From assembly GCA_002762795.1 (NCBI GenBank), contig PCYA01000017.1:64801-108648 (forward strand): a stretch of DNA of 43,848 nt, read 5' to 3'. The position numbers were made by a program, and so were the translations under genes. Numbering within the stretch: position 1 is the stretch's first letter; each line of letters begins with the position of its first letter. The DNA comes from Candidatus Woesearchaeota archaeon CG10_big_fil_rev_8_21_14_0_10_37_12 (lineage in GTDB: Archaea > Nanobdellota > Nanobdellia > Woesearchaeales > ARS49). The notes under the pieces are model-generated. The model was not told the DNA's origin. It worked only from the letters and a program-made list of their open reading frames with translations, and did not search any database. Below, piece by piece: positions 1,056-39,764 of the stretch.

Positions 1056-1216
1056 ACATGTCGGAATGCCACTCGTGATAAACACGAGTGGTTTACTGGA
1101 GCGAGTGGCATTCCGAGCATGATCAAGAACCACTAGTCATATTTTTCTTATGATTTTCTGAACAGTCATGCCACTGGTGTTGAGCACCGCAGTGCGATCA
1201 CCAGTGGTTCTTGACA
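1056..1216 (+). mobile_element. E1 palindromic element, copy A
   Basis: A 161-bp element beginning ACATGTCGGAATGCC and ending CACCAGTGGTTCTTGACA. The left half contains a perfect 14-bp inverted repeat (CGGAATGCCACTCG and its complement) and, inside it, CCACTCGTG facing CACGAGTGG. The right half contains CCACTGGTG facing CACCAGTGG, and CCAGTGGTTCTTG pairs with an internal CAAGAACCACT. It encodes no transposase. It is nearly identical to copies at 6183-6441 and 39067-39228. Subterminal hairpins, no direct terminal inverted repeat and no obvious target duplication resemble the non-autonomous relatives of IS200/IS605 elements. It sits between the starts of the DUF2238-like gene and the SET gene. 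Confidence 0.75.
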
Positions 1217-6000: not shown

Positions 6001-6181
6001 CAGAAATTCTCAAGGGATGATATTTGGGGCGAGGCAACCCACAAAACCAAATTTTGATAGAGAATTCTGGAAGACTTCGTAACCTCATACCATCGCGGTT
6101 TTGCTAACTTTGCGTTAGCAAAGTTGGGTGAATCACAACCACTATTTTGTTGAGCCATAAAACAGCTGTTATATGCTTTTT
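6001..6181 (+). ncRNA. Candidate structured RNA of unknown type
   Basis: No convincing protein is encoded here. A TATA-like ATTAAATAT with a purine stretch before it lies at 5978-5986. The following DNA can fold: CAGAAATTCTC at 6001-6011 faces GAGAATTCTG near 6060-6069, enclosing ATTTGG/CCAAAT, with GATGAT and TTTGAT in the asymmetric internal loop, which recalls a kink-turn. A second hairpin, AACTTTGC-GTTA-GCAAAGTT, lies at about 6107-6126, and the stretch ends in a T run at 6176-6182 where E1 begins. The TATA-to-helix spacing is shorter than normal, which weakens the case. It could instead be decayed mobile-element DNA. Confidence 0.2.
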
Positions 6182-6182
6182 T

Positions 6183-6441
6183 ACATGTCGGAATGCCACT
6201 CGTGTGTGTCAAGAATTGTCAATAATGATATTATTTTGTGACAATTCTTGAGCACGCCAAAATTCCACTCAAGATAAATATTGAATTGGTGGAATTTTTA
6301 GCGTATCACGAGTGGTTTACTGGAGCGAGCGGCATTCAGAGCATGATCAAGAACCAATGGTCATATTTTTCTTATGATTTTCTGAACCGTCATGCCACTG
6401 GTGTTGAGCGACGAAGGAGTGATCACCAGTGGTTCTTGACA
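6183..6441 (+). mobile_element. E1 palindromic element, copy B (interrupted by E2)
   Basis: Same ends and hairpins as copies A and C, but 259 bp long because a 97-bp E2 element (6207-6303) sits in the loop of the left hairpin, between CCACTCGTGTG and TATCACGAGTGG. Removing the insert restores the exact continuous sequence seen in copy C, with no duplicated bases. Outside the insert this copy has a few mismatches, including GAGCGAGCGGCATTCAG where the others have GAGTGGCATTCCG. Its right loop reads GACGAAGGAGTGATC, as in copy C and unlike copy A. Confidence 0.8.
6207..6303 (-). mobile_element. E2 palindromic element nested in E1
   Basis: Read on the minus strand, the element starts CGCTAAAAATTCC and ends CAATTCTTGACA. 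It has two hairpins: an AAAATTCCAC/GTGGAATTTT stem enclosed by CGC and GCG, then CAAGAATTGTCA facing TGACAATTCTTG. A second copy with the same ends and layout but a different first stem lies at 7698-7784. It encodes no protein. It shares the terminal TTCTTGACA with E1. The insertion point inside the hairpin loop of another element is typical of single-strand transposition, which is inference. Confidence 0.75.
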
Positions 6442-6552: not shown

Positions 6553-6623
6553 TGGGACTGGGAAGAATCAAACTCCCGTCATACCCACCCCAAGGGTATA
6601 GCCTATCACTAGCAGACAGCCCC
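6553..6623 (-). tRNA. tRNA-Pro(GGG)
   Basis: A 71-base cloverleaf on the minus strand. The acceptor stem GGGGCTG pairs with CAGTCCC (one G-T pair) and the discriminator is A. The anticodon stem TACCC/GGGTA carries the loop TTGGGGT, giving anticodon GGG and G37. The T stem GGGAG/CTTCC holds the loop TTTGATT. The D stem has three pairs and the loop AGTGATA. Thus position 56 is T rather than C and position 19 is A rather than G, so the tertiary pair G19-C56 appears replaced by A19-U56. CCA is not encoded and there is no intron. I see no TATA box at the usual distance, so a decayed copy cannot be excluded. Confidence 0.75.
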
Positions 6624-7697: not shown

Positions 7698-7784
7698 CGC
7701 TAAAAATTCAGTTATTTTAATAGCTGAATTTTGGCGTGTTCAAGAACTGTCACAATTATTGATTATTTTTGACAATTCTTGACA
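7698..7784 (+). mobile_element. E2 palindromic element, free copy
   Basis: An 87-bp element starting CGCTAAAAATTCAG and ending CAATTCTTGACA. Hairpin 1 is AAAATTCAGTTAT facing ATAGCTGAATTTT, flanked by CGC and GCG. Hairpin 2 is CAAGAACTGTCA facing TGACAATTCTTG. It matches the E2 copy nested in E1 at both ends and in layout, while the stem of hairpin 1 differs and stays paired. It lies 83 bases upstream of the RelE-like fusion gene. Confidence 0.7.
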
Positions 7785-23965: not shown

Positions 23966-24061
23966 TCCGCAAAAATTATATTTTTTTCTCGTATAAAACT
24001 CAATCAATTTTTCATGATTTTTCGACAATAAATTCACAAATACTAGATCTCTTTTCATTTA

Positions 24062-24152
24062 TGGGGTTACCCGGATTCGAACCGGGACGACGTGGTAATT
24101 TGCCTTTGCAGGACCCAAACCACGCATCATAACCAAGTTAGATCATAACCCC
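24062..24152 (-). tRNA. tRNA-Pro(UGG) with 17-base intron
   Basis: The minus-strand acceptor stem GGGGTTA pairs with TAACCCC, with discriminator A. The T arm is CCCGG-TTCGAAT-CCGGG. The anticodon stem CGTGG/CCACG encloses TTTGGG, an insert, and a final A, giving anticodon TGG with T33 and G37. The 17-base insert (24097-24113) is a canonical 37/38 intron: TTTG pairs with CAAA to form the 4-bp central helix, flanked by the 3-base bulges GGT and TTA, with a CC/GG intron helix. Splicing after the second bulge base restores the loop TTTGGGA. CCA is not encoded. The mature length is 74. Confidence 0.92.
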
Positions 24153-24441
24153 AACAAATTTTTTCCCTTCGGAAAAAACTTTGATCAAAAGTGCTCGTTA
24201 CACTTCGCTCGAGAAACAATTCATGAAATATTTGTTTCGCAAATATGTTTGTTTCTTTTCTCTCGCTACGTGTGATCTCACGAACCTAGCCAAGATATCA
24301 GCAGGCCAAGAAACCAAGCGTTTTCAACACAAAATCACCACAAACAGTTTAAAAAGGTTTTGGCAGTTTAGGCTCTATCTTAAACCATGGCAAAAGTTAA
24401 AATAACTCGCGCGCCTGCTATGTGCATGCAAGTTATTTTAA
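24153..24441. other. Intergenic region rich in inverted repeats
   Basis: No secure gene is seen. Hairpins occur in series: TTTTTTCC-CTTC-GGAAAAAA just upstream of the tRNA, then ATATTTG facing CAAATAT at about 24229-24247 inside a larger GAGAAAC/GTTTC fold, then TTAAAATAACT facing AGTTATTTTAA at about 24398-24441, which runs into E4. A 42-codon frame (24387-24515) starting MAKVKITRAPAM reads into E4 and is probably accidental. The clustering suggests accumulated mobile or structural DNA. Confidence 0.4.
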
Positions 24442-24558
24442 TTTGTTATGATGCTCCGCTCCTTGGGGCGGTTGGGTTCGTCCTTGTTTTTCTTACCATT
24501 GATGGGGTATCATAACTTTAAAAATACCTCGCTGCTTGCGGTGGTTGGGATTTTTATT
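24442..24558 (+). repeat. E4 repeat, short copy
   Basis: A 117-bp sequence closely matching 36265-36512 at both ends. The first block runs from GTTATGATGC to GGTATCATAAC, an 8-bp terminal inverted repeat (GTTATGAT/ATCATAAC) around GGGGCGGTTGGGTTCGTC and a T-rich stretch. After ACTTTAAA it joins directly to the end block CTTGCGGTGGTTGGGATTTT. The other copy carries a 130-bp hairpin ladder at exactly this junction. It lies 71 bases before the DoxX-like gene. Confidence 0.65.
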
Positions 24559-24629
24559 TTAAGATTTTGAACGCCGCTACTAACTGTACGTTACCTTTAA
24601 ATAATCAGCAATCAAGTTGTTTTTAAAAG

Positions 24630-36250: not shown

Positions 36251-36264
36251 TTTGCTATTCTTTA

Positions 36265-36512
36265 TTTGTTATGATGCCCAGCTCCTTGGGGCGGTTGGGT
36301 TCGTCTTTGTTTTTCTTGCGATCGATGGGGTATCATAACTTTAAACCCGAGAAAATTTGAAAAATTTTCTGGGCACAACAAAATTTTCAATTTTGTGTGC
36401 AGGAAATCACCATGATTTCCTTGCACAGAAATGCTTTGCATTTCTTGTGAATACAAAGAAAAGCAAAGCTTTTCTTGTACCCCACCGCTTGCGGTGGTTG
36501 GGATTTTTATTT
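36265..36512 (+). repeat. E4 repeat, long copy with hairpin ladder
   Basis: The left block (GTTATGATGC to GGTATCATAAC) and the right block (CACCGCTTGCGGTGG, then TTGGGATTTTTA) match the short copy at 24442-24558. Between them this copy has about 130 extra bases made of five hairpins. It separates secE from spt5, genes usually adjacent, and covers the expected promoter region of spt5. No transposase or protein is encoded. Confidence 0.65.
36346..36480. repeat. Ladder of five tandem hairpins
   Basis: Five hairpins stand head to tail: AGAAAATTT-GAA-AAATTTTCT (36350-36370), CAAAATT-TTC-AATTTTG, GGAAATCA-CCA-TGATTTCC, GAAATGC-TTT-GCATTTC and AGAAAAGC-AAA-GCTTTTCT. Each has a 7-9 bp stem and a three-base loop, and most are closed by a 3-5 bp outer stem (GCACA/TGTGC, TGCA/TGCA, CACA/TGTG, TACA/TGTA) with one bulged base. 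The sequences differ, the geometry does not. Neighbouring outer stems share junction bases, so they compete. Confidence 0.7.
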
Positions 36513-36645: not shown

Positions 36646-36696
36646 TGTCAAGAACCGCTGGTGTTGAGCACAGCAGTACGGTGACCAATGGCTTCC
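36646..36696 (-). mobile_element. E1 element, partial copy D (right hairpin only)
   Basis: A 51-bp piece equivalent to the right hairpin of E1, ending on the minus strand in CAGCGGTTCTTGACA. The loop (GTTGAGCACAGCAGTACGGT on the plus strand) is closest to copy A but inverted relative to the terminus. Stem mismatches show decay. It lies just after the secE stop. Confidence 0.55.
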
Positions 36697-39066: not shown

Positions 39067-39228
39067 ACATGTCGGAATGCCACTCGTGTGTATCACGAGT
39101 GGTTTACTGGAGCGAGTGGCATTCCGAGCATGATCAAGAACCACTGGACTATATTATCTTATAATTTTCTGAACAGTCATGCCACTGGTGTTGAACGACG
39201 AAGGAGCGATCACCAGTGGTTCTTGACA
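39067..39228 (+). mobile_element. E1 palindromic element, copy C
   Basis: A 162-bp uninterrupted copy starting ACATGTCGGAATGCC and ending CACCAGTGGTTCTTGACA. Its left hairpin loop CCACTCGTGTGTATCACGAGTGG is the intact form of the site disrupted in copy B. Its right end reaches into the cytidylate kinase frame on the minus strand and provides the last codons and TGA (39210-39212). It separates the cytidylate kinase and FKBP genes. Confidence 0.78.
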
Positions 39229-39764
39229 AACTCCACAATTTCTTTAACGATTTTTTCAGGAGTTTTATTGCTTGTATCAACAATTAAATCATAGTTTTCT
39301 TTTGCAACGTAGTCGATATTATAATGCTGCTTGTATCTACTGATATCTCTGGCTAATCTATCTTTCACACTCTTAATTGCATCATCCAGATTGTGAATGT
39401 CTTGTTCTTGCCCTCTTCGTTGTTTTTGTACGTCGCCAAATATTCTTTCTGCTGCAACTTCTGGCTTCACTGTCAAGAAAATTTTGATTGCGCTTGGAAT
39501 AAAATGAAAAGCCAATCTTGAATCGATGATAAAGTTATCTTCTTTTTCAGCAAGTTCTACAGTTCTTTTGTCTGTTTCTTTATCTATTTCTCCGCCGTCT
39601 AGTGCAGCAAGTTGTTGTAATTCTGCTAACTGCATCTCGCGTTCTTCTGCAATTTTCCGCATAAAATCTCCTGCAGAGTAATGATTTAACTTGAGTTCTT
39701 TAGCAATGAGTTTTGCTACTGTGCTTTTTCCGCTGCCCGGCGTTCCGCTTATCGTGAGGATCAT
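39210..39764 (-). CDS. cmk: Cytidylate kinase, archaeal type
   Basis: A 184-residue kinase that phosphorylates CMP/dCMP. The P-loop is SGTPGSGKSTVAKLIA (6-21); HYSAGDFMRKIAEERE is the NMP-binding part of this short archaeal family, and NFIIDSRLAFHFIP follows. The lid region has QKQRRGQEQDIHNLDDAIKS. The last five residues, VKNHW, and the stop codon lie inside E1 copy C, so the native C-terminus has been replaced or the gene ended close to the insertion site. Confidence 0.93.
   Translation of the reverse strand: MILTISGTPGSGKSTVAKLIAKELKLNHYSAGDFMRKIAEEREMQLAELQQLAALDGGEIDKETDKRTVELAEKEDNFIIDSRLAFHFIPSAIKIFLTVKPEVAAERIFGDVQKQRRGQEQDIHNLDDAIKSVKDRLARDISRYKQHYNIDYVAKENYDLIVDTSNKTPEKIVKEIVEFVKNHW

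What the first reader, a model, noticed from the sequence alone, without database searches (positions are those of the whole stretch)
6183..6441. Clean nested insertion of one palindromic element (E2) in the hairpin loop of another (E1)
Copy B of E1 differs from copy C by a 97-bp E2 sequence placed exactly in the loop of the left hairpin. Deleting 6207-6303 restores CCACTCGTG-TGTAT-CACGAGTGG as in copy C, with no duplicated target bases. This is direct evidence that E2 moved after E1 was in place, and its absence of target duplication plus the hairpin-loop target fits single-strand (HUH/Y1) transposition. Family assignment is inference.
Basis: partly seen in the sequence, partly recalled or inferred. 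Interest (0 to 1): 0.6.

Follow-up and report, generated by a model that had tools for sequence, protein, structure and literature searches.

The report
Nested double-hairpin mobile elements in archaea
A 97-base, gene-free DNA element that folds into two hairpins has jumped into the middle of a relative of itself without duplicating any bases, and it belongs to a large, apparently undescribed set of such elements spread through one archaeal order, whose moving enzyme is not visible in this genome.

Summary
Copy B of E1 (6186-6441) contains a 97-bp E2 (6207-6303); removing it gives the loop of copy C exactly, with no target duplication. E1 and E2 are the same kind of element: two hairpins, usually TG-TC[hairpin U]GA-G-CATG-C-TC[hairpin D]GA-CA. 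The host genome (1.35 Mb, archaeal) gives 47 E1 hits, several broken by other elements at exact, repeated sites. A related E2-type element at 7698-7784 sits in another repeat whose predicted empty site exists uninterrupted elsewhere in the genome. The linker core occurs in 89 of 288 sampled genomes of the order (340 places; backwards control 6). In 74 elements oriented by stem sequence alone, A-N-A precedes the U side in 66, against 12 of 74 on the mirrored D side. The D end is TTGACA, which fits the same target consensus. This polarity, without duplication, resembles IS200/IS605, PATE and REPIN transposition. But the genome has no Y1 transposase (even at E up to 10) and no TnpB, and other well-assembled carriers also lack Y1. 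The hairpin loop is not the target rule; the short motif is. Verdict: real mobile elements with an IS200/REPIN-like insertion pattern, mobilising enzyme unidentified.

The parts
6180..6185 (+). Target flank TTTACA directly 5' of E1 copy B (fits TTNACA, the E1 form of the target motif)
   Evidence: flank statistics
6186..6441 (+). E1 copy B, double-hairpin element U1-D1 (TGTCGGAATG...GGTTCTTGACA), interrupted by E2
6207..6303 (-). E2, 97-bp double-hairpin element U2-D2 (read on minus: CGCTAAAAATTCC...TTCTTGACA) inserted in the U1 loop of E1 copy B
6304..6309 (-). Target motif of E2: GTGATA on the minus strand, directly 5' of the element
   Evidence: same target in L026
6347..6441 (+). Hairpin D1 of copy B with the right end TTGACA
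1059..1216 (+). E1 copy A, uninterrupted; target flank TTGACA
39070..39228 (+). E1 copy C, uninterrupted; target flank TTCACA; gives the empty site for E2
7698..7784 (+). E2-type element (U2-D2) inside another palindromic repeat, target TTTGAAA
7645..7697 (+). Left half of the host repeat (E5), ending TTTGAAA
7785..7825 (+). Right half of the host repeat (E5), beginning TTCGCAA; joined to the left half without insert in L243 and L244

Best explanation
E1 and E2 are small, gene-free mobile elements of one architecture: two hairpins, usually with TC...GA at each base, joined by a palindromic linker (GAGCATGCTC and variants), with left end TG (or CG) and right end TTGACA. They insert as one polar unit directly 3' of a short motif, roughly TTRAHA with core A-N-A, without duplicating bases. 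The right end TTGACA fits the same consensus, so an excised circle would carry TTGACA|TGTC, the same kind of junction as target|element. The most likely mechanism is cutting and rejoining of one DNA strand by a hairpin-recognising nuclease of the IS200/IS605-RAYT (HUH Y1) type acting in trans, probably on exposed single-stranded DNA. E2 entered E1 because the E1 loop contains GTGATA on one strand. Shown: ends, target polarity, absence of duplication, paralogous empty sites, nesting, order-wide spread. Inferred: single-strand chemistry, circle intermediate, enzyme class. Unknown: the enzyme.
For: Exact empty/filled pairs without duplication: window B against copy C; E3 in two E1 subtypes at the same GGTGATC| site (L038, L045); E1 in a D2-type hairpin at TTCTTGRCA|ATTCC (L041; unfilled paralogue L004); the E5 host repeat, whose predicted empty site (two flanks joined) was found uninterrupted in L243 (98%) and L244 (96%) and filled in L245, L246, L249, L252. 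Polarity: in 74 elements oriented by stem letters only, A-N-A precedes the U side in 66/74, mirrored D side 12/74; position -1 is A in 71/74. Right end TTGACA in 73/74, TTGACG in one. Stems are kept although their sequences differ between elements, and folds exceed shuffles (z -5.7 to -8.4). Linker core in 89/288 genomes of the order, 340 places, backwards control 6 places.
Against: No Y1 transposase in G000 even at E up to 10, none in carriers G110, G185, G205, and no convincing TnpB in G000 or 11 other carriers. Carrier status and Y1 presence are only weakly associated (odds ratio 1.8, p = 0.02 for at least one copy; not significant at higher copy number; relatedness not corrected). Y1 loci examined have ends of another kind. 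The ends are partly inverted repeats (TGTC/GACA), unlike classical IS200/IS605, and TTGACA overlaps the D stem. No guide tetranucleotide was identified. E3 uses GATC rather than A-N-A.
Confidence: 0.6

Rival explanations
1. The elements are moved by an enzyme that is not of the Y1 type, for example a tyrosine recombinase acting on folded DNA or an uncharacterised archaeal nuclease, as was left open for the Haloquadratum small mobile repeats.
For: No Y1 in G000, G110, G185, G205; no TnpB; ends partly inverted repeats and a palindromic junction TTGACA|TGTC; Haloquadratum SMR-A share short size, inverted ends, no duplication, preference for palindromes, and have no known mover (PMC3119063). G000 has two tyrosine recombinases.
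Against: The target/right-end agreement and the one-sided target motif are the pattern expected of Y1 elements; two tyrosine recombinases is an ordinary number and neither was shown to lie in such an element.
Confidence: 0.27
2. The nesting comes from replication errors at palindromes (template switching, slippage) or from gene conversion among dispersed hairpins rather than from transposition.
For: Hairpin modules are shuffled between elements (U2 with D2 or D4, U1 with D1 or D4), and inner hairpins are found inverted (L045), so recombination between palindromes also acts.
Against: Whole elements of fixed ends appear at dispersed sites, always on the same side of a short motif, with exact empty sites; slippage gives no such polarity or spread.
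Confidence: 0.08
3. The elements are functional regulatory or RNA structures (for example terminators) that are conserved in place, and the nested case is an old composite.
For: They lie between or at the ends of genes in the window (copy C overlaps the 3' end of the cytidylate kinase ORF).
Against: No Rfam match in the window; dispersed near-identical copies (86-97% among E1 copies) next to unrelated flanks; exact filled and empty paralogous sites.
Confidence: 0.05

Closest known systems
REPINs / BIMEs (REP doublets, thought to be moved by RAYT = TnpA_REP)
   Same: Two hairpin units in inverted orientation forming one short gene-free replicative unit, extragenic; the RAYT would act in trans (PMC3116915).
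   Different: Conserved foot is TGTC...GAGCA, not GT[AG]G; no RAYT here, and only the IS200 subclass of Y1 proteins was reported from archaea (PMC6006769).
PATEs and IS200/IS605 elements
   Same: Near-terminal palindromes, no target duplication, insertion beside a 4-6 base target, with an equivalent short sequence at the element's right end (PMC3119063; PMC6006769).
   Different: Ends here are partly inverted repeats; hairpins fill almost the whole element; no Y1 or TnpB in this genome; local IS200 ends do not match.
SMR-A small mobile repeats of Haloquadratum walsbyi
   Same: About 110 bp, inverted ends, no duplication, often inserted in near-terminal palindromes of other elements, mover unknown (PMC3119063).
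   Different: Here hosts and guests have the same architecture, a target motif is defined, and the elements occur across an order; sequence comparison with SMR-A was not possible.
Mitochondrial double-hairpin elements
   Same: Short gene-free elements made of two hairpins (named in papers found; details from my own knowledge).
   Different: Organelles, other sequences; no end or target comparison was made here.
MITEs of DDE transposons
   Same: Short non-autonomous elements that rely on an enzyme in trans.
   Different: No target duplication and a one-sided target motif.

Membership tests
IS200/IS605 (and derived PATEs) | Y1 HUH transposase in the genome or a matching autonomous copy | tested here: not met
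   PF01797 absent from G000 at E up to 10; Y1 loci of relatives that were checked have other ends
IS200/IS605 (and derived PATEs) | No target duplication | tested here: met
IS200/IS605 (and derived PATEs) | Insertion directly 3' of a short conserved target, with an equivalent sequence at the right end | tested here: met
   A-N-A on the U side 66/74 against 12/74; right end TTGACA in 73/74
IS200/IS605 (and derived PATEs) | Subterminal hairpins with a guide tetranucleotide at the foot | tested here: inconclusive
   Hairpins present; no guide identified
IS200/IS605 (and derived PATEs) | No terminal inverted repeats | tested here: not met
   Ends TGTC...GACA in most elements
IS200/IS605 (and derived PATEs) | Single-stranded circular intermediate | not testable with these tools
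   needs reads or experiment
REPIN / BIME | Two inverted hairpin units as one unit | tested here: met
   TGTC[..]GAGCA / TGCTC[..]GACA layout
REPIN / BIME | GT[AG]G tetranucleotide at the hairpin foot | tested here: not met
   foot is TGTC/GACA
REPIN / BIME | RAYT gene in the genome | tested here: not met
   PF01797 covers this protein superfamily (my knowledge); none found
Haloquadratum SMR-A | Short, inverted ends, no target duplication, insertion in palindromes of other elements | tested here: met
   definition; the inverted ends are only about 4 bases
Haloquadratum SMR-A | Sequence relatedness | not tested
   SMR-A sequences were not on hand
DDE MITE | Target duplication | tested here: not met

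The most novel reading that the evidence does not exclude
An order-wide class of archaeal double-hairpin elements with its own target rule is moved by an enzyme that is not a Y1 transposase, or by the host's own replication machinery, making it a distinct transposition system.
Probability: 0.25. Interest if true: 0.82.

Novelty: new variant of a known kind. Interest (0 to 1): 0.6.

Why it matters
Tiny gene-free elements that amplify in small archaeal genomes without a visible transposase raise the same open question as the Haloquadratum small mobile repeats: what moves them. Here the ends, the target motif, the empty sites and the host range are now explicit, so the mover can be sought by co-occurrence over the order and tested in vitro with short oligonucleotides. 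The elements also shuffle hairpin modules and can add new ends to genes.

Tried and rejected
Hairpin loop as the target rule: rejected, since E1 sits in a stem in L041/L083. Y1 transposase in the own genome: none. TnpB: none convincing. Matching ends at Y1 loci of relatives: none (only hairpins near the gene were examined, so a distant end could be missed). The genome-contig scan with the neighbouring nucleotidyltransferase gave only distant bacterial relatives and no empty site or organism name. The one viral hit of the linker pattern lies in what looks like coding sequence and is not an element. Hits L101, L115, L119, L122, L124 of the pattern searches look like chance matches without hairpins. 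Independent origin of the two E2-in-E1 cases could not be decided: the E1 parts of B and L026 are close (96%), while their E2 parts differ strongly. Literature: searches found no description of these elements in DPANN or Woesearchaeota, but only open papers are held.

Full report
Observation. The window carries three E1 copies: A 1059-1216, B 6186-6441 and C 39070-39228. Copy B contains E2 (6207-6303), and with E2 left out copy B matches copy C exactly through the loop. The finding is exact. The window is G000:C12:64801-108648 of a 1.35-Mb genome, 99% complete.

What E1 and E2 are. E1 gives 47 hits and E2 15 hits in the genome. Reading them shows one architecture: TG-TC[U]GA-G-CATG-C-TC[D]GA-CA, with variants CGTC/CGCT at the left end and TGATC or CGTGCTC in the linker. 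Left and right hairpins are exchanged between elements: U1 occurs with D1 and D4, U2 with D2 and D4, U5 with D1 and D4. As single-stranded DNA four examples fold into two hairpins, all better than 200 shuffles (z -5.7 to -8.4). No Rfam family matches the window.

Nesting. Exact nested cases in the own genome are: E2 in the E1 loop twice (window B; L026); E3 (TGTCAGAAATC...CTATG) in the D1 hairpin of two different E1 subtypes at the same site (L038, L045); E1 in a D2-type hairpin (L041/L083); and short A-rich hairpins after CAAG or GGCA in several copies (L026, L030, L032, L037, L038, L039, L045). The related E2-type element at 7698-7784 lies in a further repeat. I predicted its empty site by joining the two flanks, and the genome holds it uninterrupted at C16:11290-11383 (98%) and C19:106595-106688 (96%), while other copies are filled with U2-D2 or U4-D2 elements at the same base. 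None of these shows a target duplication. Whether the two E2-in-E1 cases are separate events is undecided.

Spread and rule. The linker core TTCYTGAGCATGCTCARGAA with up to two mismatches occurs in 89 of 288 genomes of the order, 340 places in all, against 6 places for the same pattern read backwards. From 82 parsed elements, 74 could be oriented by stem letters alone. On the U side the flank reads T-T-R-A-H-A: position -1 is A in 71/74 and -3 is A in 68/74. A-N-A is present in 66/74, but on the mirrored D side only in 12/74. The right end is TTGACA in 73/74 and TTGACG in one. Copies within a genome are not independent, and E3 with GATC is an exception. Because nested cases show the motif in the host sequence before insertion, it is a target and not an element end.

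Mechanism. A polar element, no duplication, a short target on one side only, and a right end that fits the same consensus are what cutting and rejoining of one strand by a hairpin-recognising nuclease predicts. In this model E2 entered the minus strand of E1 at GTGATA|CACACGAG. The hairpin loop is not needed, since E1 in L041 sits in a stem. The strand chemistry and the circle are inferred.

The enzyme. G000 has no PF01797 protein, also at E up to 10; carriers G110 (13 linker matches), G185 (11) and G205 (9) have none. Over 288 genomes, 40 of 89 carriers have Y1 against 61 of 199 non-carriers (p = 0.02, uncorrected for relatedness; not significant for carriers with two or more copies). TnpB is absent or unconvincing in 12 carriers. 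G000 has two tyrosine recombinases. Either the mover was lost, is too divergent to be seen, or is of another kind.

Known relatives. Architecture is closest to REPINs (two inverted hairpin units, PMC3116915), the insertion rule to IS200/IS605 and PATEs (PMC3119063, PMC6006769), and the ecology to the Haloquadratum SMR-A repeats, whose mover is also unknown (PMC3119063). It fails the REPIN test on the GT[AG]G foot and the RAYT, and the IS200/IS605 test on the transposase and on the partly inverted ends. I therefore call it a new variant of the known kind of small hairpin-ended mobile elements, not a member of any named family.

Noticed in passing
window 39210-39228: The right end of E1 copy C overlaps the 3' end of the archaeal cytidylate kinase ORF (39210-39764, minus), so the element supplies the last codons and the stop.
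   Followed up: partly
window 6553-6623: A tRNA-Pro (ggg) gene on the minus strand lies about 110 bases from E1 copy B.
   Followed up: no
window 24438-24559 and 36261-36512: Another repeat pair with palindromic ends (GTTATGATGC...GTATCATAAC), 92% alike over 85 bases.
   Followed up: no
window 36655-36691: A worn remnant of a D1-type hairpin without its partner.
   Followed up: no
L026, L037, L038, L039, L045: Short A-rich hairpins (CCAAGAAAATGC...GCATTTTCTTGG) sit after CAAG in the D stem of several elements: a further, smaller class of nested insert.
   Followed up: partly
L045 1501-1561: The inner part of the U1 hairpin is inverted relative to other E1 copies, which suggests flipping between palindrome arms.
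   Followed up: no
window 24061-24153: ARAGORN reports a tRNA-like gene with an uncertain four-base anticodon.
   Followed up: no
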